Assembly: GCA_905221615.1 (NCBI GenBank)
Contig: CAJNDT010004013.1
Span: 209,501-273,500, forward strand
DNA length: 64,000 nucleotides
Source: Symbiodinium sp. CCMP2592
Lineage: Eukaryota > Sar > Dinophyceae > Suessiales > Symbiodiniaceae
Direction: 5' to 3'
The position numbers were made by a program, and so were the translations under genes. Positions within the stretch are counted from its first letter, which is position 1. The number at the start of each line of letters is the position of its first letter. Of this stretch, positions 2,125-63,680 are shown piece by piece. The notes under the pieces are model-generated. The model was not told the DNA's origin. It saw only the letters and a program-made list of their open reading frames with translations, and did no database searches.

Positions 2125-3408
2125 TCAAGGAGAGCGGGGAACGCCCCACGTGACTATTGTGCCATCGGCTCGGACAGCAGCAAAGCCATAATGAGAGGCC
2201 TGGATGTACTGTACACCTACAAGCTGCTCCTGCACAGCATTGACGTCGGTGTGTTCCGCGTAGCCGTGGCCCCACGTGACGACGGTTCCGTCACTCTTCA
2301 AAGCCGCGAAATTGTTCCGGCAGGCTTGGATCATGATCGTCCCCTGTGGGTCTGGAAAAGGGTCAAGAAACAAAAGGTAGTTCCACGGCACGACGGAACC
2401 GTCTGCAAGAAGGGCAGCAAACATAAAGTCACTGGCCTGGATCGCTATCACGTTCTTCAGCTGATGCTGAACACGTGTGCTGTCGCCTCCGGCGCTGCCG
2501 CTACCCCAAGTCACCACACGTCCATTGGCCAGAATTGCCGCGAATGCCAACTGTGAAGCTGCGATGCATTGAACGTTCTGAAGCTCTGTCTGCAATGATT
2601 CTGTCAACTCCAACTGATCGTCACCCCAGCTTACAACCGTTCGATCGTCACGGATGGCGGCGAATCCAACACCATTAGCCTGAATATGCTGCACATTCCG
2701 GAGCTGAGCCTGCACGACACTGCTGTCGCCACCGGTTCCATGAAAACCCCAAGTCACGACCGAACCATCACCAAGGATGGCAGCAAAAGCTGATTTTGTG
2801 CTGTTGATCTTCTCCACGTTCTGGAGCACATGCTTCACAGAGCTGCTGTCGCCACCGTTTTCAGGATCTCCCCAAGTCACCACGGAACCATCACCACGAA
2901 TGGCAGCAAAAGCTGTTTCTGTGCATTGGATCTGCACCACATTGTGCAGCTCATCCTGCACAGCACTGCTGTCACCACCACTGCCAGCATCACCCCAGGT
3001 TACGACCCGTCCGTCACCACGAATGGCTGCAAAAGCTTTGACATTGGCTTGAATCTGTTGCACATTGTTCAATGCATCCTGCACATCCATGCTGTCGCCA
3101 CCGAATTCAGGATCGCCCCAAGTGATAACGGAACCGTCGCAGGCAATGGCAGCAAAGGCCTTAAGCGTGCTCTGGATCTGTTGCACATTTCTGAGCAGCT
3201 TGTCGTTCGCAGGGTCAATGTAGCCACCCGCCTTTGGGCAGCCCCAACACATAACATTTCCATCACCCAAAATGGCAGCGAAAGCAGTGACTGTGGTCTG
3301 AAGTTGAACGGCGGTGACGTGCATCATCAGCCGTTCGCCGCCCTGAAGCCCAGCTGCCTCGAGGGTGAGAGTCGGGTCCAGGGGCGTGCCAGACGAGTCC
3401 AGCAGCAT
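2125..3408 (-). CDS. RCC1/HERC-like repeat protein
   Basis: The frame has 427 codons and about nine tandem ~50-residue repeats of the form F-A-A-(I/L)-x-x-D-G-x-V-V-T-W-G, followed by G-G-D-S-S-x-V-Q-x-x-L-x-N-V-x-x-I-Q. These resemble single blades of RCC1-type beta-propellers. Proteins of this kind are very numerous in dinoflagellates and are often labelled HERC2-like; none of the HECT ligase domain is present. The N-terminus (LLDSSGTPLDPTLTLEAAGLQGGE) looks like the end of a ubiquitin-like fold. The frame stays open upstream of the Met at 3408 for at least 40 codons, so the true start is probably in an upstream exon. It ends in VPRSP and a TGA. Function is unknown; protein-protein interaction is the usual inference. 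Confidence 0.85.
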   Translation of the reverse strand: MLLDSSGTPLDPTLTLEAAGLQGGERLMMHVTAVQLQTTVTAFAAILGDGNVMCWGCPKAGGYIDPANDKLLRNVQQIQSTLKAFAAIACDGSVITWGDPEFGGDSMDVQDALNNVQQIQANVKAFAAIRGDGRVVTWGDAGSGGDSSAVQDELHNVVQIQCTETAFAAIRGDGSVVTWGDPENGGDSSSVKHVLQNVEKINSTKSAFAAILGDGSVVTWGFHGTGGDSSVVQAQLRNVQHIQANGVGFAAIRDDRTVVSWGDDQLELTESLQTELQNVQCIAASQLAFAAILANGRVVTWGSGSAGGDSTRVQHQLKNVIAIQASDFMFAALLADGSVVPWNYLLFLDPFPDPQGTIMIQACRNNFAALKSDGTVVTWGHGYAEHTDVNAVQEQLVGVQYIQASHYGFAAVRADGTIVTWGVPRSP

Positions 3409-3682
3409 GGCATCAACAACCGGGCCCCACTTTCTAAGACGGAGACCTTGTAGCCTACACGGCTTAAGGGCCTCTTTGCACTTTTGGGTGAGGGTTCCGA
3501 TTCAGGTTTAGGATAGCTTTCTATAATGGGTCCTCTCAGGAGTCGAGTACAGCAGTGATTCGAACGACGGTAAAGCCAACGAACACGAAGAACTGCACCT
3601 CACCGCACACACCGCAGAAGACACTGACCACCTTCTAGCACGAAGTGTCCCTGGTTGACACTAGAACACCCCAAACGTACTA

Positions 3683-41009: not shown

Positions 41010-42060
41010 CGTGCCTAAACGAGCTTAACTCGAGTTCCTTTCATCTATTGAGAGCTTGACATGACTGAGTCCTATTCCCTAGACCCGGAAACCGACACCT
41101 TGTGCTATAATCCGCAACCCGGGAAAACAGAACCCCTGAAACTAAGCCTAAACCCAAAACCTAAACCCTAAACCCTTAGCTGACGGGTTCAGTTCATGGT
41201 TCAGGGTCTAGGGTTTAGTTTTTCTAGATTTGTGTGTGTCATCCTTGCACAGAGGCCAAGCTCGATCTGTATCGTTCCAATTCTAGCAGATGATCCGAGA
41301 AGGGTTCAGTTTGTAGGGTTTAGACTTCAAGATTTAGACATAAACCGTGCAGCCTGATGAGCCAGATGGATACTCATTTTAGAATTTAGGATGTAGAGGC
41401 TTGAGGTTTAGGGTGGGGAAAACATGGAAAAAAGTCCAGGTGACAGCAACTCCTCAAACTGCCCTCAGTCCTGTTTCCTTACACCCGCAACCCAACACCC
41501 TAAGCCTTAAACCTAAAAAGCTCGGGAAAACCGAAACTCTTTAGACAAAACCCATGCAGCCTGATGAGCCGGTGGATACTAAGTTTAGAATTTAGTTTTT
41601 AGGGGTCTGGGTTTAAGTCTTATTCCCTACACCCGCAACCCAACACCCTAAGCTTTAAACCTAAAAAACTCGGGAAAACCGAAACCCTAGACACTAAAAC
41701 CTAAACCCAAAACCTAAAGCCCCACTGTGCTACCGACAGGTAAACTGCCCTCTTGCGTCTCTCGATATTCGACCCGAGTCCGGCTGAAAATTGGGTACAG
41801 AACCCATAATGCTAAACCCTAAACCCAAAGAACCCTAAACCCTCAACTCTCGAACCCTAAACCGTACGATTCTAGGATCCAATTCAGCGCGCAGGGTCGT
41901 GGAGCGGTTTAGGCTTTAAAGTTCCGCAAACCCTCATACCCCAAATCCTACACCCTGAACCCTAAACCGTTTTAGGACCCAATTAGGGCGCGCAAGGTTG
42001 TGGAACAGTTTAGGAGTTTAGGGTGCACGGGGTTCGGGTTTAGAGTTTACACGGGGGGTG
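41010..42060. other. No gene seen; telomere-like motifs and a small repeat family
   Basis: The motif 'aacccaacaccctaag(c)cttaaacctaaaaa(g)ctcgggaaaaccgaaa' occurs near 41480 and 41640, with a relative at 45240-45290. The rest consists of 'aaccctaaaccc' arrays that resemble degraded CCCTAAA telomere repeats. Confidence 0.5.
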
Positions 42061-46579: not shown

Positions 46580-47430
46580 TTGGTCCCGAAAAAACCAAAA
46601 AATTTCCCTGTCCTCCTCCGAGTAAGGAAACTTTGAGGGTTCAGACCTTAAGTAAGATGGATAGAGGCTAGACATTCACACCAATACGGAGCAAAGACTT
46701 GTCCAATGACACAATCGTCCGACACCAAGGTTAGCCTAGCGAACCTTGTCTTTCTCAAGCCTACGGGAATTCTCCGGCCCCAAAACCCAAGCACCCCACT
46801 TAAGTCAGAAGTTTGGGAAGGGCCCAGCTGCCAGCATTTTCTGGGTATGGGAAGCGGGAGCCGACTGGGCAAGCACGGTTAAGGTTTAAGCTTCTGCTTT
46901 CACTTCCTATCATACTCTACACACACAGCCTAACTCAGACAAAAAGCCTCACTATTTCACATTTCCGTGCTTTAAGCTTAAAGGTCAGACTCCTAGGATG
47001 TAGGGTTCAGAACTAAGGATCAGGAATCTTGACCCGAATAAGTACCCAACACAAGCCATTGTGATTTCCTTGCTCTACGAACGAAGCCAGTGCCAAACGG
47101 GAATCAACAAACCTCTACAGAAACCTTGATCCTGTGGGCGGGCTTGATGATCAATGCAACCCAATCTCATCGGGTCTGAATAATTGAAGTCTCACATGAA
47201 TTGAAAACTTGCTACACATTGTGTAACAGCATACGGAAACTAAAGAATTTTGCACTCAATTCCCTCCAACCCAACCCTAACTTCTAGCCCGACGAGCACC
47301 ATAAGGAGGTACGGTTACTAGCTACTCAAGCATCGGAAGGCAAAAGAGTCATATCTGCGAACCCTGGGTGACACACCTTAACCCCTAATCACCCTAAACC
47401 CTTAAATAGCTCTGAACACTTCAATCCTGG
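46580..47430. other. No firm gene
   Basis: A polypyrimidine stretch near 46600 precedes the exon-1 acceptor of the gene at 46576. The plus strand near 46811-46870 is weakly coding-like. 47055-47300 is the second copy of the 31193-31445 segment. Confidence 0.35.
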
Positions 47431-47432
47431 GA

Positions 47433-47537
47433 GCCGGCACTGACGGAGCGGCCAAATCAGCAGCCGGGGCGGACCTGCAGGCAGAGATACTGAGCCCTAC
47501 ACCGACACAGCCCAAAGAGCCGGACGCTGGGGTTTAG
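47433..47537 (+). CDS. Ala/Pro-rich exon
   Basis: The plus frame reads AGTDGAAKSAAGADLQAEIL..TPTQPKEPDAG, then V-TAG, with a donor-like GT (ggg|gtttag) at the end. A P/E/K-rich plus frame continues at ~47765-47980 (..KGTPEPDTTPKRNQQPKQ..), which may be a following exon of the same low-complexity protein or simply a proline-coded drift of 'cccgaa' repeats. Confidence 0.4.
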   Translation, partial: AGTDGAAKSAAGADLQAEILSPTPTQPKEPDAGV

Positions 47538-48217
47538 GAGGGCCTGGGATTAGGTCTAGGGTTTAGGGGTACCGGTTCGGACGTTGGGGTTAGCAGGGCC
47601 TGGGATTATGGAAGTTTGCGGTTAGTGTCATGCTTCCAGCTCAGACGGGCTTCTGGATTGGGTTTTCGGGTCTAAGGGTTTGCGGTTTGTACGCGTCCGG
47701 TTCGGACGTTGACCATTGCTGCTTAGAACGGGTTCGGGCCCGGGGCTTGGGGTTTCGGGTTTAGGCTTTGGAGCCAAGGTCAAAGGAACGCCTGAACCCG
47801 ATACAACACCAAAGCGAAACCAACAACCGAAGCAGACCACGAGTCCCGAACCGAAGATAGCCGAAGCCCTGTCTCCCGGACCCGAACCCAAACCCCGAAA
47901 GCCCGAAACCCGAAGCCTGGTTTTCCGAGCTCAGACAAAACGAGCTGCCGGCCGGCCGTGCATGCATTTTGTTAAACCCAATGTAGTCAGTCTGCAAATA
48001 TGCTAACCCAACCCGGCCTATGCCTAGGAAATCTGGCCTGCGACACCCTACAAATCTACCCCGCACACACGGCACGGCGTGAAACTGAAACTCACCCCTC
48101 TCTGGCAGGAGCGGCCAGCGAACCACGGCCGATGCTTTATTCAAGGCGCTTAGCTGTACTCTAAGTCTTACGTAAGGCTATTATGTTAAAGCTAACCCCC
48201 CAAGCCTAAGCCGTGGA

Positions 48218-50371
48218 TCAGCCTTTGCTCTTGCCCTTTCCAGAGCCTTTGCCCTTGCCCTGGCCCTTGGCAGGGCCTTTGCCCTTGCCCTGGCCCTGGG
48301 CAGGGCCTTTGTCTTTGCCCTTGCCAGGGGCTTTGCCCTGGCCCTTGCCAGGGGCTTTGCCCTGGCCCTTGCCGGGGCCTTTGCCCTGGCCCTCAGAGCT
48401 CGCCGCAGAAGAGCTCGCCGGCGCAGAAGGCTCTGGCCGTTCTTGGCATCAATAAAAAACCAAGACAACCCTGAACCCTAAACCCTAAAAAATCATTGAT
48501 TTTTAAACCCTAAGTGCCACCACTGGCAATAAGCCCGTCCCCCCAAGAGTATCCTAGGAATAAAAAGGATGCCCTTTTTGGTTTAAAGGGGCTTATAAGG
48601 GAACCCGAACCCTCAAAAAAGGAATTAGGGCCTGCTCTAGGTCCTTAACCAAAAATCCGAATGAATGTGATCGACGAGCAACGTGGCGGCGGTGTCACCC
48701 ACGCCACATAGGGGCTGTGGTCCCCGCCATGCTGCTCCAGGTGGCGGTGCCACTGATGCAGGATCTCGTAGGCCTTGCAGAGCCGTCTCACGAGATCCTG
48801 CCAGGGCCAAACGTCCACAAGCCGAATCATAAGCCCCAAGAGTAACCTAGGGATAAAAAGGATGCCCTTTTTTGTTTAAAGGGGCTTATAAGGGAACCTG
48901 AACCCTAAACAAGGGAATAAGGGTTGAATCAAGCCGAGGCACGTCGAGCTCATGAAGCAATGCCTGCATCAGGCCCTTGTCACCCGGCCCTTCCCGGTGA
49001 ACGTGATCCGGGCCAAACGCTGCCGGGATCGACGGGAAGTTCAAGGCCTGCCACTCTGGCGCGGGAGTGGTACTGGCGTGGGAGTGGTACCACTCCCACG
49101 CCGTCCTGTACCGCTGCAGCAAGGTGCGAGACTCCTTGGCTGGTTGCTATTCGACCAGAAATAGCCTGAAAGCCCCGAAAGGAAAAACCAAAAAAAGACA
49201 AGATGCTGAATAAAGGACAAGCGTCCGCTATGTCGCAGAGAAGCTTCTGATGCAAGTGCAGGTGCGACACGTTTGTGTCGTGGCCACTTTGCAGCAGGGC
49301 TTTCGCCTTGGAATGAGTGTTCCGGGTTGACGGAAATCACTACGCCGAAAACTAATTCGAACAAATCTTTCACATACACGGAAGAGTGCAAGACTTTACT
49401 AAGAGAGGTCCAAGAGGCAGCCTTGGCCTCCTCCTTGCGCTTCAAGCGATCCCGCTCCTTCTTCGAGGCCTTGTTCTTGCCCTGAGACAACGGACTTAGT
49501 ATTATTATTGAATAAAAGCGGCTATACATACAAAAAACCTTGATAAGCCGCCAAACCGCTAAACCCCATGAGACAAGGCACCTTGGCCTTGGCCTTTGGC
49601 ACTGGCTGTCCGGCATCCGCCTCGCACAAGAGACTTAGTATCATTTACTATGGATCTCAAGCGGCTAAACATCATACAACCACCGGACAAACCCCTAAAC
49701 CACATAAGAACAAGGCTATCACCATGACCTCCGGCGCCACCGCGGCTGCCTCGCCCTGTGGCTCCTCCGCCGGCTCCCGCAGCTCCTGGTCAGAACCAGC
49801 CGCCTCCTCCTCGCCAGACTCCACTGGCACCTCGATTGGGCTCACAATTTCTTGGGCCAAGATCAATATATTCTAACTATTTATTATCGCAACCCACCTC
49901 AAAAATACAACTCCTTGCCCCAACGAGTTGCGACAGAAGTGGGGCTCTCGTCGTCATGCTCGTACCAAACAGGAGCCTTAGCTTGCAATTTCATATCAAC
50001 ACATCAACTAATTTGATGACGGAGGGCTTTGAGCGAACCCGATCCGACAAACAAAACTTTCAGGTTGCAACTGTGAAGCTGACGGGTCGTGTTGGAGCCG
50101 CAGCATCGCCCTCAGTGTTTGGGTGTCCATGTTGTCGAGGTGCTCTGAAAAGTCCGAAGCCGGCGACGCCTGCAGTTTATGAACATGATCAGAATCATCC
50201 CCGAATACTTATAAAAGGTACTGTTATTTCTCGCCAAGCAGCAGGCTGCGCCGCAGCAGACGCCGACGGGCGATCGTCCCCAGAACCAGCAGAGCCGCGA
50301 GCCGCAGCAGACGCCGACGGGCGATCGTCCCCAGAACCAGCAGAGCCGCGAGACCGCGAACGGGAAGACAT
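48218..50371 (-). CDS. Ten-exon gene, unknown GK-rich protein (~426 aa)
   Basis: Exons 50371-50222, 50169-50058, 49981-49912, 49840-49729, 49620-49582, 49481-49422, 49306-49219, 49139-48911, 48846-48650 and 48441-48218 sum to 1281 bp and keep one frame from ATG to TGA. Introns are GT-AG except after exon 6, which needs a GC donor. Order in the product: an SR-like start (MSSRSRSRGSAGSGDDRP, with that 16-residue unit repeated), KAPVWYEHDDESP, an acidic ESGEEEAAGSDQELREP part, basic PKAKAKGKNKASKKERDRL, a helical AKALLQSGHDTNVSHLHLH region, WEWYHSHASTTPAPEWQ, WPWQDLVRRLCKAYEILHQW, and a C-terminal GQGKGPGK-type tail. No known domain. Junctions after exons 3 and 8 have alternatives. Several introns are repeated elements (see separate entries). 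Confidence 0.75.
48531..48625. mobile_element. Introner-like element, family B, in intron 9
   Basis: Shares ~85 bp with 48827-48925 ('aaaaaggatgccctttttt', 'tttaaaggggcttataaggga'). Ends form a short inverted repeat (ataagccc / ggggcttat). It lies wholly inside the intron between exons 9 and 10 of the gene at 48218-50371. Confidence 0.7.
48827..48925. mobile_element. Introner-like element, family B, in intron 8
   Basis: Second copy in the same gene, 200 bp from the first. The coding strings on either side share 'cggcttg', compatible with a target-site duplication, and the GT-AG solution uses bases inside the element. Confidence 0.7.
49482..49581. mobile_element. Introner-like intron, family A (intron 5)
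   Basis: This 100-bp intron resembles the neighbouring intron 4: shared 'ccttgt..atg.ggtttag.ggtttg' near the 5' end, then 'tagccgctt' and 'atactaagtc' near the 3' end. 'ttgtctca' occurs at both ends, compatible with a target-site duplication. Confidence 0.65.
49621..49728. mobile_element. Introner-like intron, family A (intron 4)
   Basis: 108-bp intron paralogous to 49482-49581. Only a 39-bp exon separates the two copies. Confidence 0.65.
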
Positions 50372-50387
50372 GTTGTGAAACTAGTTG

Positions 50388-50423
50388 GCCGGGGCTTCGA
50401 TGAGTGCCGGGGCTTCGATGAGT
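50388..50423. repeat. 18-bp direct repeat 5' of the ten-exon gene
   Basis: Two copies of 'gccggggcttcgatgagt' lie 17 bp upstream of the ATG, in the 5' UTR or promoter. A tag before 'tttcacaacatg' could serve as the trans-splice acceptor; this is speculative. Confidence 0.5.
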
Positions 50424-50731
50424 GGGAACTATCGAATTCAAAGTTTATTTAGTGACTTAGTTCAAGCCAAGAAGCAACATGAATGGTATAGTTTAGGTTT
50501 CCCGAAGGGCCGCCGAGCAGCTGAGCATTCATATCTAAGGCACTAGCCACTCAGGCACCAGCCACCTCTATGGCATCAGCCTAGACAGTCCAAGGCTAAG
50601 GCATTCAGCCATTTGTAAGATTCATATCTAAGCAACTAGGATGCCCAATAGTACCCTTAAATTATTCCAATCTTGTAGTCCTAGGTTCCTTGTAAGGGCA
50701 TATGCTCATATTATTCCAAAGGCTTAGTTAG

Positions 50732-50863
50732 CCTAACTATCGTGCCTACGCCTTGCACTCCAACCATGGTCGGAAGCCCAAATTGCAGCAGAAAGCACGA
50801 GCGGTGGGACAGGCACTGGGTCGGGTTCTTAACCATGTCAAAGGCTCCTTGACACCATCGTAG
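50732..50863 (+). CDS. C-terminal exon, basic protein
   Basis: After gttag the plus frame reads PNYRAYALHSNHGRKPKLQQ.. and ..VGQALGRVLNHVKGSLTPS, then TAG; 43 codons in phase with the acceptor. The composition is clearly protein-like. The upstream exon was not found in the 350 bp to the divergent minus-strand gene, so it may be a gene fragment. Confidence 0.45.
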   Translation, partial: PNYRAYALHSNHGRKPKLQQKARAVGQALGRVLNHVKGSLTPS

Positions 50864-51149
50864 AACCCGAAGGAAGCACCACACAGTCCAACATTGACAG
50901 TTTCCGAACCCTATTCAAAATTAGTCGTATTGTCATGGCCCCGCAAGCAACAATAAAATCGTACGTGCCAATGCCCTGTACACCCTGGAGACAATGCCAA
51001 AGGGTTTGGCCGACAATGGGTACGGGTCAGTTAGCTGAGACGTTAAGCGAGGTCGTGGAGCATGAGGGCTCTCGTTCTCTCTCTTAGCCAGAAACCCTAG
51101 AACAGTGAAGACTACTGTTACAGTTTGAAGAGTCTTGACTTATTTACAG

Positions 51150-51275
51150 GGGCACGGAAAACCCACTGGAATTCATGATCCCGAACAATATTGCTCTTGC
51201 CTCGAGGACTGCGAAGCGCCGCCAAGGCAGCAAGCAGCCAACGGGCAGGCAGCCTCGGATAAGACGGCCGTTAAG
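51150..51275 (+). CDS. Exon with consensus splice sites
   Basis: Flanked by tatttacag and aag|gtaacg. Frame 1 reads GHGKPTGIHDPEQYCSCLED..ASDKTAVK (phase 0 at both ends). Frame 2 (ENPLEFMIPNNIALASRTAK..) is open too and stops at the donor. A following exon may start near 51350 (..ADKTDSQIVANQPRHLNH..), just before the AT-rich inverted-repeat element. Confidence 0.42.
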
Positions 51276-51427
51276 GTAACGATCACAATAACAAGTAAAT
51301 GGCGCCATTGTTCAACCTTTCGTATGTCAATAAGGGTTTAACAGCTTTCAGGCGCCGCGGATAAAACTGACTCACAAATTGTGGCTAACCAGCCGAGGCA
51401 TTTGAACCATATTCTTAGGTCTTCAAA

Positions 51428-52383
51428 CACCAGCAACAGCCGCAACAATAGACCCGCTGCGAGTGATCAGATCACCTCAAATTTTGAATCTGTTGCCATT
51501 CAAGTTTGCCTCTAATTTGCTATCAGCCGCCTCAAAATTGATTACCTATGCTTGTTTGCCTTCTGTGAGTTCAATTCAATTAATTATTTGCCACTTAGCA
51601 ACTATTCTTCATTTCTAGATTCATAGGTAAAGGCAAGGGGAGCATTCAATGCCAACGAAACAAATCGCTTTTGCATGTGATATGCCACAAGGAGTTGATT
51701 TTAAGCAAGAGCCTAAGATCTTACCGAAAAACAAATACATAAATTTTGAAGCGGCTGATGCCAATTTTGATTCAAACTTGAGAGTGAGCCTCAAATTTGA
51801 GGCAATTTAATCGCCTGGAGAAGGTTTATTGTTGGCAACCGCCCAACCGTTGCTGCTTCATGTGATTAGAATAGTAATAGTTAATATATTTTTATTCAGA
51901 ATTAATAGCAAGAATACAGCAACAATGTGTGGATTTCCGTACATCCACGAGAACTTTCCGACACAGCATACAGAATTGATTGAACAAACGAAGCTAACCA
52001 TTACAAGCTCGAAGCGCCTTCTTTATTTACCAGCAGCAGCCGCGTCAAAATTTGTATAGTTGGTTTTGGTAATTAATATTACTAGCACTACTTCAACGAC
52101 TCATAATTTGTACGATTTGCAAAGCAATTCTTTCGCTGATTGAATACCACTGACAGATAGTGGATGCTTCCCTTGATTGCCGCTGCCTATTGAATCCAGA
52201 AATGAAGAATAGTTGCTGAGTGGTAATTGACTTGAACTCACAGACGGCAAACCAGCATAGGTAATAAATTTTGAGGCGGCTGGTAGCAAATTAGAGGCAA
52301 ATTTACCGTTCAACAAATTCAAAATTTAAGGTGATCTGATCACTCGCAAGGGGTTACTGTTGCAGCCGTTGCTGATGCTGGAA
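51428..52383. mobile_element. AT-rich ~0.95-kb element with long terminal inverted repeats
   Basis: Arms of ~220 bp (51428-51650 and 52160-52383) are imperfect reverse complements, with 'gcgagtgatcagatcacct' in each, 'gcctctaatttgct' and 'agccgcctcaaaatt'. The ~510-bp centre is AT-rich and holds related fragments ('gaagcggctgatgcc', 'cctcaaatttgaggc') but no transposase-like frame. Composition contrasts sharply with the flanks. Probably a non-autonomous foldback or MITE-like element. Unambiguous target duplications were not found. Confidence 0.75.
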
Positions 52384-52905
52384 GTATACGCTTCGAGTTT
52401 GTGGCTTGTTTCGATTATTTGTTGCCTCAGTGATGTTTTGTATGCTGCACCTCGAAATCTTCAAGGTCTTATTTAGTCTTAGTAGTATTTGAGACATCTT
52501 GATTCCATGGTCTTCTTTTGGCAGTATTACAAAATATATTCCAGAAGCTCAGGCCCAGCACGTAAAGAATCATTTGTTCGCAAGGCTTGTCGCAGTGATG
52601 AACAGTTAATCATCTTCTGCTAAAGAGTGCGTTATTTCGAAATAGTTTACCCATAATGTAGTGCAGAGGCGGCTATTGACCAAACTAGAACTAGACTCGG
52701 ACTGTCATACAGTGTTTCAGTAACGGCGTCAAGAACTAGCATACACAACAATTAATTACGAAGAAGAACTGCAAGTGTAAGGAATACTGGGGGCAAGGAG
52801 CCGCGAGCACCGGAGTGGCACGACTCGTCTCCTTTGGGGCGGGTGTTTTGCTTGCGGGTTTAAGCTTTCGGGTTCGGGCGCTCACTCTCCGGCACTCTGG
52901 ACCCT
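52384..52905. other. No gene seen
   Basis: AT-rich DNA continuing from the inverted-repeat element, then a GC-rich transition into a minisatellite. No supported frame. Confidence 0.35.
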
Positions 52906-53070
52906 TGGAAGTCCGGATGCCCAGAGCCGAAACTCCGGGCAAGCTCGGATCTTCCCCGGCCCTTGAAGTCCGGATGCCCAGAGCCGAAACTCCGGGCAAG
53001 CTCGGATCTTCCCCTTGAGGTCCGGATGCCCAGAGCCGAAACTCCGGGCAAGCTCGGACCTCGTAACCCG
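52905..53070. repeat. Three-copy 52-57 bp minisatellite
   Basis: 'gtccggatgcccagagccgaaactccgggcaagctcgga' begins at 52911, 52968 and 53020. The open frames in both strands here come from the repeat. 53230-53880 after it is telomere-like or AT-rich, with no gene. Confidence 0.85.
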
Positions 53071-53899
53071 GTGACCCGGTCCCCCACAGACATCCAGGAC
53101 CGAAGTCCCGGACGAGCTTGTGGGCAACCAGCATCACATACCACCCTGTATCCCTGTACGCCTAAACCCGCGCCTCGTCTCAACGCCGCCAGCACAGGGG
53201 GTTTGCCGGGGTTTAGGGTTTAGGGGTCTAGGGTCTAGGGTTTCGGGTGGAGGTCTGAGTCTAGGGGTCAGGGTTTGGGGCTTGAGGTTTACGGGCTCCA
53301 AGGTCTCGGGTCTAGGGTTTAGATAATAGAGTTTGGAGATCAAGATTTCTAGTTTTAATTACACTCGGGCAAGCCTGGCCAGATCTGCAATATTAGGGTT
53401 TACAAGGATTTGGGTTTAGCGCTTAAGATTAGGCTATGCAGTTTAAGAGCTTCCATTTATTAGAGGACCCCACAATCCTTTCTGAATTCACGATCTAGCA
53501 TTTTCACCCGATTTTATCTTTGAAATTTAAACCTTTCAAATCATTGCAGGCCCAAACAAACCTGAAACTTAAATTTTCCCAACCCGCCCAACCCCCCCTT
53601 TCCCTAAGATCCTCCAGCCGATGAACTCATCCGGCAGGAGGCCCGCCCCGGAGCCAAAACTAGAAAGTCCCTCCTTACTCCCTTCTATATTCACAGACAT
53701 ACATATGCATATATATAATAGATATATAGAAGGTTCCGTGAATAGTTAGTTGGCTAGTAGTACCATCATTTTAGGATTCGTACATGGATGAAGGTAGGTG
53801 GGGCCATCCCGAAAAAGACTCCTCACTGTCAGGGCCTTCATACTTAGACTCGGGGTTTGGGGCACTATGCTATACTCTCTGTGTGTGTGTACAAAGAAG

Positions 53900-54310
53900 C
53901 GAGCCCCCTAAACCCTGAGCAAGCCCATCCAGGCGAGCCCCGAAAATTACCCTGGGCAAGCCCATCCAGGCGAGCCCTCGAAATCCTGAACAAGCCCCCC
54001 CAGCCGAGCCCTGAGCAAGCCCATCCAGGCGAGCCCCGACAATAACCCTGGGCAAGCCCATCCAGGCGAGCCCTCAAAAACCTGGGCAAGCCGCTCCGGG
54101 CGAGCCCGAATCCCCCCAAAACAGCCTGAACAAGCCCCTCCGCCCCGAGCAAGCTAGCCCACTGAGCCTCCCGGCCACCGAATCAAGGTCGCCGCCACAT
54201 GACAGGGAATGCTTTCAGGAACTACTCGTCAGTAACAGCACCAGCAACAAAGGGTTACTGGAACTCATGCAGGACTCCGTTGCCGGGCAAAAGGGTCGGC
54301 GGCAGTGGCG
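53900..54310. repeat. Minisatellite element 'caagcccatccaggcgagccc', copy 2
   Basis: Six to seven ~34-37 bp units plus the same tail as 7680-7960 ('gccgccacatgacagggaatgctttcagga'). It lies directly after the last recognisable exon of the carrier gene on the minus strand. Confidence 0.75.
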
Positions 54311-54418
54311 GCAGCCATTAAATATATTTATATTTATGTAAGTCCGTTGCGAAAATCTTACTAAGCTCCATAAACCCGAATTTAAAGCCTGTAACGCCCT
54401 TGCAACATGCCAAGTCAC

Positions 54419-57899: not shown

Positions 57900-58060
57900 C
57901 TGGGGTTTAGGGTTTAGGGTTGAGAGCTTTAGGGTCTCTTCTGTCGATTTAGGGCCCAGCGGCGTTCGGGGTTTAGGGGGTTTAGTGGGTTTAGGGGGGG
58001 GTGTGGGTTTAGGGGGTTTAAAGGGTTCAGGGCTTCAGCAGGGTTTTAGCATTAGTGTGT
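57900..58060. repeat. Interstitial TTTAGGG-like repeats
   Basis: 'tttagggtttagggtt' and longer G-rich variants, resembling the plant-type telomere repeat reported for dinoflagellates. Another patch closes the window (63966-64000). Confidence 0.75.
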
Positions 58061-58078
58061 AAACATATTGCGCACGCA

Positions 58079-58981
58079 CGCACACACAGACAGACACAGA
58101 CAGACAGACACAGACACAGACACGGACACAGACAGAGACACAGACACGGACACGGACACGGACACAGACACGGACACGGACACAGACACAGACACAGACA
58201 GACACAGACAGACAGACAGACACAGACAGACAGACAGACACAGAGAGACAGACACAGACAGACAGACACGGACAGACAGACACAGACAGACAGACACAGA
58301 CAGACAGACACAGACAGACAGACACAGACAGACAGACACAGACAGACAGACACAGACAGACAGACACAGACACACAGACAGACACAGACAGACAGACACA
58401 GACAGACAGACACAGACACACAGACAGACACAGCCACACAGACACAGACACACAGACACAGACACACAGACAGACACAGACACAGACACAGACACGGACA
58501 CGGACACGGACACAGACACAGACAGACACAGACAGACACAGACAGACACAGACAGACACAGACAGACAGACAGACACAGACAGACACAGACAGACAGACA
58601 CAGACAGAGACACAGACAGAGACACAGACAGAAACAGACAGACAGACACAGACAGACAGACACAGACAGACAGACACAGACAGACACAGACACAGACAGA
58701 CACAGACACAGACACAGACAGAGACAGACAGACACAGACACACAGACACACAGACACAGACACACTGACACAGACACACAGACACAGACACACAGACACC
58801 GACACAGACACAGACACGGACACAGACACAGACAGACACAGACACAGACGCAGACAGACACAGACAGACACAGACAGACAGACACAGACACAGACACAGA
58901 CACAGACAGACACAGACACAGACAGACACAGACACAGACACAGACACAGACAGACACAGACAGACAGACAGACAGACAGAC

Positions 58982-59052
<71 letters not shown>

Positions 59053-59240
59053 CAGACACACAGACACACAGACACACAGACACACAGACACACAGACACA
59101 CAGACACACAGACACACAGACACACAGACACACAGACACAGACAGACACACAGACACACAGACACACAGACACACAGACACACAGACACACAGACACACA
59201 GACACACAGACACACAGACACACAGACACACAGACACACA

Positions 59241-59272
<32 letters not shown>
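58079..59272. repeat. 1.2-kb CACAGA/CAGA simple-sequence array
   Basis: An almost uninterrupted mixture of cagaca, cacaga and cacgga units with local higher-order blocks: (cagacaga)n in 58960-59050 and a regular 'cacacaga' octamer from 59055 to 59245. Frames of over 400 codons on both strands (T/D/R/Q/H or C/V/S/L only) are artefacts. Confidence 0.97.
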
Positions 59273-59273
<1 letters not shown>

Positions 59274-59391
59274 GGGCGATAAGTGCTTTGAAGAACGTAT
59301 CGTAGTCCAATAAACGGAACTTGGCACCCGTGCAAAAATCGTACTTGTTAGCTGTTTCTTGCGGATTTTAGTAACCCCAAAAGCTATTTGA

Positions 59392-59889
59392 TTTCCAAGC
59401 ATTCGTCAGTGTTTAGGACCCCTGAAAGTTCAATGTGGAGTCTCTGTTCGCACCGCGCGAAAGCCGCGAGGGCTTGAAGTACAACACCAAACTACCAGAG
59501 ACCAGGGCCGTTTTGCGAAGTTGAAGAAGCAAGACTGGTGCGGTAACATCAGCAAAAACCTCCTGAAGGGTTTCGCCCTAAATTTTAAGATCCTGCACCC
59601 GAAGTTGACCCGTGCTTCAGCGCCGCAACCTTGCTCTGCTTTCCATCATAACGCAGCCCTCAGAGCTGTGTTTGTATGGCGCCAATACTCTTTTTGATTG
59701 ATGCCTGTCTGGGGACCGAGCCAGTGTTTTGAGCCCCAACACTTTGAACATTGGGGTTTGGGTTAAGGCTATTCCAATCCCTGCATACCTGCAGTGCTGA
59801 ACTCGATGCCTGGAGCCCTTATCAACTCTGAAGTCGCCCAAACTTCTGCGATGGGAGGCCAAAAGTGGGGTTTAAGATTCTTGGGGTAG
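59392..59889 (+). CDS. Two-exon 3' end of a plus-strand gene
   Basis: The frame is open from 59392 to a donor at 59570 (aagg|gtttcg, phase 1) and resumes after cctgcag at 59795, ending at TAG 59887-59889. The product reads ..[56 protein letters not shown], ..[12 protein letters not shown]. Basic and hydrophilic. No known domain. The upstream acceptor lies among several AGs at 59400-59435; earlier exons would have to lie across the CACAGA array. A minus frame (59862-59617) overlaps but fits worse. Confidence 0.5.
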
Positions 59890-63564: not shown

Positions 63565-63680
63565 AGCTTACTTGTCGGGTATCATGGGGACATCAAGGTT
63601 AACCTTTTTGGGTATATAGGGACTATATAGGGACCATACTCCCCCAAAAAGGTTAAAGGTTATCTACTCTACTACTAGGT
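63565..63680. mobile_element. Introner-like element, family M4, copy 2
   Basis: Paralogue of 61470-61598. An internal inverted repeat (aaggttaacctttttggg / cccaaaaaggtt) is better preserved here. It follows the second exon candidate (63708-~63679) of the gene starting at 63936. Confidence 0.75.

What the first reader, a model, noticed from the sequence alone, without database searches (positions are those of the whole stretch)
48218..50371. One gene carries two families of introner-like introns
Ten exons of the 48218-50371 gene join in a single frame, which fixes the introns. Introns 4 and 5 are paralogous to each other (family A), and introns 8 and 9 contain another shared element (family B) with short inverted ends. 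Direct repeats at the exon edges (ttgtctca; cggcttg) look like target-site duplications. Multiple related introns within one gene are the signature of recent intron gain by insertion of non-autonomous elements, as known for introners in several algae and reported in dinoflagellates. The sequences of these two families may not have been described.
Basis: partly seen in the sequence, partly recalled or inferred. Interest (0 to 1): 0.88.

Follow-up and report, generated by a model that had tools for sequence, protein, structure and literature searches.

The report
Sense-oriented mobile DNA in algal introns
Two introns of this algal gene hold worn copies of a short jumping-DNA family whose checked copies point the same way over long stretches of chromosome, apparently along the genes, while the other look-alike intron pair seems to be an old duplication inside the gene.

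Summary
The gene (minus strand, ATG 50371 to TGA 48218) and both similar intron pairs are real.

Introns 4/5 ("family A") resemble each other far beyond chance (z 15.5), but a pattern from their shared parts hits 21 places in the 1.1-Gb genome: 20 in this gene's ten copies, one elsewhere. At this sensitivity A is an old intragenic intron duplication, not a dispersed family.

"Family B" is mobile: a MITE-like element of about 111 bp with imperfect inverted ends (12 of 15 bases), an exact 4-bp target duplication in 31 of 42 sampled copies, and about 4,000 copies. B1 lacks its 3' end, B2 both ends. I found no sign that B creates introns: sampled sites do not interrupt long open frames, and AG|GY sites occur at background rate.

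Unexpectedly, B is polarised: all 81 neighbouring pairs within 400 kb, among 196 places examined, share orientation, and 7 of 8 nearby RCC1 coding places agree with it. This fits sense-only survival in transcribed DNA, or directional integration.

The frame does not fix the introns (5-58 in-frame solutions each; introns 6 and 7 are not forced). No RNA data were available.

The parts
48218..50371 (-). host gene, about 10 exons; protein with an RS/E/K-rich N-terminal half and a GKGQGK-rich tail; no Pfam family found
   Evidence: three-frame reading and codon scores; Pfam scan of a joined-exon protein, 0 families; nine full-length genomic copies counting the window's own, one lacking the 3' part (C1001) and one 3' fragment (C558)
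50170..50221 (-). intron 1, likely GT-AG, 52 nt
49977..50052 (-). intron 2, one of several in-frame choices
49831..49913 (-). intron 3, ambiguous (GA-AG choice shown)
49621..49722 (-). intron 4 (A2), GT-AG choice, 102 nt; conserved ATACTAAGTC near the 3' end
49482..49581 (-). intron 5 (A1), GT-AG choice, 100 nt; old paralogue of intron 4
49569..49576 (-). direct repeat TTGTCTCA, first copy (inside intron 5 by the GT-AG choice)
   Evidence: control
49483..49490 (-). direct repeat TTGTCTCA, second copy (inside intron 5 by the GT-AG choice)
   Evidence: control
49307..49394 (-). intron 6, GT-AG choice (a GC-AG choice also keeps the frame); not forced by a stop codon
49140..49188 (-). intron 7, GT-AG choice; not forced by a stop codon
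48798..48942 (-). intron 8, GT-AG choice (GTGCCT...TGGCAG); the alternative is exact excision of 48826-48937, which is non-canonical but also keeps the frame
48832..48923 (-). B2: core of family B (consensus 18-109 of 111, 88 of 92 identical), regular ends missing
48930..48937 (-). direct repeat TCGGCTTG, first copy, next to B2
   Evidence: control
48818..48825 (-). direct repeat TCGGCTTG, second copy, next to B2
   Evidence: control
48442..48649 (-). intron 9, GT-AG choice (TTG|GTTAAGG...GCCAAG|AAC), 208 nt
48542..48645 (-). B1: family B (consensus 3-106 of 111, 99 of 104 identical); 5' end nearly intact directly after the donor GGT, 3' end missing

Best explanation
Two different things were read as one pattern.

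(1) Introns 4 and 5 are copies of one spliceosomal intron, duplicated inside this gene long ago (about 70% identical); the pair was then copied along with the whole gene. Shown: the similarity and the confinement at the sensitivity used. Inferred: the duplication route.

(2) Introns 8 and 9 each hold a degraded copy of a dispersed, MITE-like DNA element of about 111 bp with imperfect 15-bp inverted ends (CTAGGACCTAGAGTA / TACTCTTGGGTCTAG) and 4-bp target duplications. Shown: ends, target duplications, copy number, and that B1 and B2 are truncated and carry different diagnostic bases. Inferred: it is moved by a transposase supplied in trans, and the two copies sit in spliced-out DNA.

(3) The orientation of the family is uniform over chromosome stretches of hundreds of kb. 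Shown on 196 places of about 4,000. That the direction is that of transcription rests on 8 RCC1 places, one kinase place and this gene. Likely reason (inferred): copies survive in transcribed DNA only in sense direction, because the antisense copy would disturb splicing or RNA ends. The element's own 3' end, ...TCTAG, reads like a 3' splice site in sense.
For: A: pair z 15.5. The search with A1 gave 10 candidates, all in this gene's copies. The pattern TAGCCGCTT-N10..35-ATACTAAGTC has 21 places, 20 of them in the gene copies (two per copy), backward control 0.

B: 5'-end pattern 2065 + 2204 matches, backward control 109 + 103. Exact 4-bp TSD in 31 of 42 copies; two loci were fetched twice, so 31 of 40 distinct. 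Inverted ends 12 of 15 on my consensus. Truncations.

Polarity: 71 of 73 adjacent pairs (at least 200 bp apart) among the first 100 listed places agree. With the places added (196 in all), 81 of 81 pairs within 400 kb agree and 86 of 91 overall; all 5 switches lie more than 450 kb apart. Same-contig neighbours L010/L012 and L022/L023 have unrelated flanks, so they are separate insertions. RCC1 coding strand agrees with the nearest B in 7 of 8 places within 210 kb. The one usable kinase place (C990, 352 kb away) agrees. Other asymmetric repeats in the sampled loci are mixed, majority:minority 121:59 over the 25 families tallied of 27.
Against: The frame-keeping 8-nt repeat at B2 would fit a true insertion that made an intron. 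There is no transcript here to settle splicing. The A1 search did not return A2 although the two are homologous, so A-like relatives near 70% identity could have been missed; the pattern search finds only those keeping 19 exact bases, and the A2 search did not complete. Sampled B copies are the best-scoring ones, not a random draw. The listed places come from low-numbered contigs only, about 5% of those matches are chance, and only two same-contig pairs were checked for independence. C9 contradicts the gene-direction link, the two C49 places may be one gene, and of two RCC1 places more than 1 Mb from any listed B one agrees and one does not. Some other repeats also lean to one side (8:1, 7:1, 8:2), so polarity may not be unique to B; a genome-wide asymmetric control was not obtained.
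Confidence: 0.66

Rival explanations
1. Family B is a true introner family. Insertion creates an intron by taking splice sites from element and target duplication, as described for Symbiodinium microadriaticum; the sense-only orientation is then simply the requirement to be spliced.
For: 4-bp TSD, inverted ends and a 3' end reading TCTAG match the published description of S. microadriaticum introners, whose example spans 115 bp by its printed coordinates (PMC9860276). Uniform orientation. B1 starts directly after the donor GGT.
Against: AG|GY insertion sites: 40 of 4,269 matches (about 4,057 net of control), about 1%, against a background AGGY rate of 0.9%. Open frames across the emptied sites are no longer than controls: median 62 against 73.5 codons, at least 100 codons in 5 of 42 against 46 of 206.
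Confidence: 0.2
2. B2 is an exactly excised non-canonical intron of the Amoebophrya type: direct repeat at the borders, hairpin inside, no GY-AG needed.
For: Cutting at TCGGCTTG keeps the reading frame. The element folds with a stem pairing ATAAGCCCC with GGGGCTTAT, z -1.79, 7 of 200 shuffles as good. Amoebophrya introners have 3-5 nt direct and 8-20 nt inverted repeats (passages of PMC7789003).
Against: No register has an AG acceptor (sequence). A GT-AG solution exists (48942-48798). The direct repeat is not beyond chance on its own (305 of 4000). B2 lacks the family's own ends.
Confidence: 0.2
3. Introns 4/5 belong to a dispersed but strongly diverged introner family.
For: The homology runs nearly from splice site to splice site and both copies keep CCTTGT...TTGT. 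One outside pattern match on C5362.
Against: Only this gene's copies are found by the A1 search, and 20 of 21 pattern places are in them. The outside match is not far above chance (control 0; my estimate about 0.2 expected).
Confidence: 0.2
4. B integrates directionally (coupled to transcription or replication) rather than being sorted by selection.
For: Orientation concordance is total over the tested range (81 of 81 within 400 kb), stronger than I would expect from selection against one orientation. Sampled sites look non-coding.
Against: Inverted ends plus a short TSD point to a cut-and-paste transposase, for which I know of no such directionality (recalled).
Confidence: 0.2

Closest known systems
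Introners of Symbiodinium microadriaticum (Gozashti et al. 2022, PMC9860276)
   Same: probably the same family of algae; 4-bp TSD; inverted ends; 3' end suited to a 3' splice site; similar length (example 115 bp by its coordinates; B element 111 bp plus TSD 4)
   Different: B insertion sites show no AG|GY preference and no long open frames in the sample; sequence identity to the published family was not tested
Miniature inverted-repeat transposable elements (MITEs)
   Same: short, inverted ends, fixed-length TSD, thousands of copies
   Different: orientation uniform over chromosome stretches; inverted ends imperfect; the autonomous partner is unknown
Amoebophrya introner elements (Farhat et al. 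2021, PMC7789003)
   Same: inverted repeats plus 3-5 nt direct repeats
   Different: there found inside RNA-seq-supported non-canonical introns; here splicing is untested
Polarella glacialis introners (Roy et al. 2023, seen only as cited in PMC11453091)
   Same: many introner families in a dinoflagellate
   Different: 12,253 introns from introner insertion are reported there; A and B here fail or lack that evidence

Membership tests
MITE / non-autonomous TIR DNA transposon (family B) | terminal inverted repeats | tested here: met
   12 of 15 bases on my consensus (6 of the outer 8); 0 of 20000 random 15-mer pairs reach 12; ends seen in sampled copies
MITE / non-autonomous TIR DNA transposon (family B) | target-site duplication of constant length | tested here: met
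   exact 4 bp in 31 of 42 copies, 31 of 40 distinct
MITE / non-autonomous TIR DNA transposon (family B) | dispersed high copy number at unrelated sites | tested here: met
   4,269 exact 5'-end matches, control 212; different flanks
MITE / non-autonomous TIR DNA transposon (family B) | mobilised by a known transposase | not tested
   no autonomous partner sought
Introner (family B) | copies coincide with introns in many genes | not testable with these tools
   unannotated genome, no RNA; open-frame test negative
Introner (family B) | splice sites supplied by element or TSD (AG|GY target) | tested here: not met
   40 AG|GY sites of 4,269 matches, at background; tested on the AG|GY form only
Introner (family B) | sense orientation relative to genes | tested here: inconclusive
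   81 of 81 neighbouring pairs within 400 kb concordant, 7 of 8 RCC1 places agree; the link to genes rests on few places
Introner (family A) | multiple similar introns in different genes | tested here: not met
   20 of 21 pattern places lie in copies of this one gene; 10 of 10 hits of A1 likewise
Introner (family A) | target-site duplication | tested here: inconclusive
   TTGTCTCA at A1 is frame-breaking; its TTGT core is shared by A2; chance 338 of 4000, and 2582 of 4000 for the A2 repeat
Amoebophrya-type non-canonical intron (B2) | RNA-seq-supported splicing at non-GY-AG borders | not testable with these tools
   no RNA; both models keep an open frame

The most novel reading that the evidence does not exclude
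A MITE-like family of about 4,000 copies whose orientation is dictated by the direction of transcription of its chromosome domain: either it can persist only in the sense direction because its RNA behaves like an intron end, or it integrates directionally. Its copies then form a natural strand map of unidirectional gene blocks, and it would be an intermediate between an ordinary MITE and an introner.
Probability: 0.5. Interest if true: 0.75.

Novelty: new variant of a known kind. Interest (0 to 1): 0.58.

Why it matters
How introns arise from transposons is open, and dinoflagellates are a main test case. This family has the anatomy of reported introners and a strict strand polarity, but in the sampled copies it does not seem to make introns. 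It could show what an introner looks like before it gains, or after it loses, the ability to be spliced. The polarity can be tested on existing annotated Symbiodiniaceae genomes. The case also warns that two similar introns in one gene need not mean a mobile family.

Tried and rejected
Protein homologues to fix the exons: two searches with a joined-exon protein found none (one search scored only the 8000 candidates sharing most words). A third, with the RCC1 open frame, only pointed to the kind of organism. Viral contigs: none. Folding as evidence of function: z between -1.79 and +0.30, not convincing. TSDs from direct repeats alone: rejected as weak. B2 as its own subfamily: rejected. A as a dispersed family: rejected at this sensitivity. 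Tandem exon-intron duplication for A: exon 5 is not clearly like its neighbours (scores 9 and 8, no shuffle control); undecided. TIR word TGGGAGTTTCCGAAAAT as orientation control: it proved to be an inverted-repeat end, so it is not a clean control. All-against-all repeat matches (801 same, 717 opposite) are also blurred by palindromic elements; one search is the cleaner control. Codon scores and open frames of the B flanks relative to B sense were balanced and uninformative (score above 3: 8 B-sense, 6 antisense). A genome-wide asymmetric control (GTACATGGAGCCTTAGG) did not complete.

Full report
What organism. The window is C4013:209501-273500 of a 1,098,105,373-base assembly in 5,383 contigs. 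The 458-aa RCC1-repeat open frame at 2128-3501(-) has 2,615 matches; the ten best are EukProt and ENA entries without organism names and named Symbiodinium proteins, at 44-54% identity. A U6 snRNA lies at 41207-41307(-).

The gene. Read on the minus strand, codon scores and open frames show about ten coding blocks. An in-frame stop forces a break at seven of the nine gaps; introns 6 and 7 are not forced, since the frames of exons 6 and 7 stay open to 49043 and 48982. The claim that the frame fixes the introns is too strong: every junction allows 5 to 58 in-frame GT/GC/GA-AG solutions. Besides the window's own, three copies are 99.9-100% identical, five more full-length copies are 97-98%, one copy (C1001, 98%) lacks the 3' part and C558 holds a separate 3' fragment. 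None of the eight aligned copies lacks any of these introns. In that alignment the 1-nt and 7-nt indels fall in introns 4 and 9, a 33-nt indel keeps the frame in exon 1, and one copy (L006) has a 10-nt deletion in exon 9. That supports the layout of those parts, except that L006 may be a pseudogene or an assembly error.

Pair A. Introns 4 and 5 are homologous nearly from donor to acceptor (z 15.5, 0 of 200 shuffles) at about 70% identity. Searching the genome with intron 5 gave 10 candidates, all in this gene's copies. A pattern made of two blocks shared by both introns gave 21 places: two in each of the ten gene copies and one on C5362, with a backward control of 0. The A2 search did not complete. 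So A behaves as an old duplication inside the gene. The TTGTCTCA repeat is not a clean target-site duplication: its TTGT core is also in intron 4, cutting at it breaks the frame, and random places in the window give as long a repeat in 338 of 4000 trials.

Pair B. The shared 90-bp piece (91%) belongs to a large family. Looking at copies in 20 and then 20 more loci (two of them the same loci again) showed full elements with ends CTAGGACC... and ...GGGTCTAG; on my consensus the ends are inverted repeats at 12 of 15 bases. In 42 copies with both ends, 31 have an exact 4-bp target duplication, 2 have one mismatch and 9 have more; two of the nine are repeats of loci fetched twice. The exact 5'-end word CTAGGACCYAGAG occurs 2065 + 2204 times against 109 + 103 for the backward word, so about 4,057 net. 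B1 matches consensus positions 3-106 of 111 (99 of 104 identical) and lacks the 3' end; B2 matches 18-109 (88 of 92) and lacks the regular ends. The 5' end specific to B2 occurs only in the ten gene copies plus one place with one mismatch (backward control 1). B1 and B2 carry different diagnostic bases (GTTCGGG/GGATAC against GTTCAGG/GGTTAC), so they look like separate insertions.

Does B make introns? Two tests say no for the bulk of the family. First, only 40 copies sit at AG|GY, about 1%, while AGGY occurs at 0.90-0.91% of positions in this DNA; none of 30 sampled intact 5' words had it (two loci counted twice). Second, after removing element and duplication, open frames across the site are not longer than at control positions: median 62 against 73.5 codons, at least 100 codons in 5 of 42 against 46 of 206. 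The copies tested are the best scoring, not a random draw. Introns and intergenic DNA cannot be told apart here.

Polarity. In the first 100 listed places the strand is nearly uniform along each contig. Of 73 neighbouring pairs at least 200 bp apart, 71 agree; within 400 kb, 68 of 68. Adding places (196 in all) gives 81 of 81 within 400 kb and 86 of 91 overall, the five switches being 450-822 kb apart. Neighbours L010/L012 and L022/L023 have unrelated flanks, so at least there this is not segmental duplication; other pairs were not checked. Coding strands of RCC1 repeats (one position per cluster) agree with the nearest B in 7 of 8 places within 210 kb (one disagreement, C9; the two C49 places may be one gene), and one of two further places beyond 1 Mb agrees. 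A kinase motif gave 29 places, of which only C990 had a listed B on its contig; it agrees at 352 kb. In the window, gene and B copies are both on the minus strand. Other asymmetric repeats in the same loci are mixed (121:59 majority:minority), though a few lean. Genes in alternating unidirectional blocks are known for S. microadriaticum (PMC8110479, passages including parts of the abstract).

Explanation. The simplest account is an ordinary cut-and-paste element whose copies survive in transcribed DNA mainly in one direction; the sense 3' end TCTAG resembles an acceptor, and the antisense copy may bring harmful RNA signals. Directional integration is the bolder alternative. The in-gene copies are worn remnants in introns 8 and 9. 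Intron 8 is probably spliced at GTGCCT...TGGCAG; exact excision at the 8-nt repeat remains possible because it too keeps the frame.

Literature. Introners with 4-bp TSD and TIR in S. microadriaticum: PMC9860276, section 7 read and passages seen. Suessiales introner frequencies: passages of PMC10522408 and PMC11114475. Intron gains and MWG|gy..sag|GY borders in Symbiodinium: passages of PMC4201569. Amoebophrya: passages of PMC7789003. Review with the Polarella numbers: passages of PMC11453091. In my searches for dinoflagellate MITEs or transposon orientation bias none of the titles and abstract openings listed (10 of 246, 10 of 14 and 8 of 46 papers) is about this polarity; I did not look at the rest, and the tool states that most subscription papers are missing from that library.

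Noticed in passing
L073 (C1001) from about 4164 on and L074 (C558) before 3371 on its minus strand: One gene copy is split inside B1 at window 48638/48639: its halves lie on two contigs and the foreign DNA begins CTTCTAAGGGCGGTGG and ends CCACCCCGCCCTTAGAAG with a TA at the junction, as if a TIR transposon had inserted into the element.
   Followed up: partly
window 46718-54333 and C2057, C1413, C240: At least three further contigs carry this gene region at 99.8-100% identity: recent segmental duplications or uncollapsed haplotypes.
   Followed up: partly
genome-wide, pattern TGGGAGTTTCCGAAAAT: Another repeat with 11,367 + 11,274 exact matches of one word, often paired + and - some 70-100 bp apart, so probably an inverted-repeat end.
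   Followed up: no
12796-41008: Many diverged direct repeats (TRF units of about 127 and 211-214 nt, and multi-kb copies), including a 3.1-kb pair 97.8% identical.
   Followed up: no
58027-59405: About 1.2-kb CA/CAGA-type microsatellite open in several frames on both strands.
   Followed up: no
2128-3501, minus strand: Stop-free 458-aa RCC1-repeat open frame; a back-translated pattern of its repeat (DG-x-VVTWG) occurs 2,891 + 3,224 times in this genome, backward control 0.
   Followed up: partly
63577-63659, minus strand: Weak match to family B (nhmmer E 1.2e-5) at a hairpin-like TAACCTTTAACCTTTTTGGG...CCCAAAAAGGTTAACC element; may be another MITE.
   Followed up: no
49075-49102: Perfect 28-nt palindrome inside exon 8 of the gene.
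   Followed up: no
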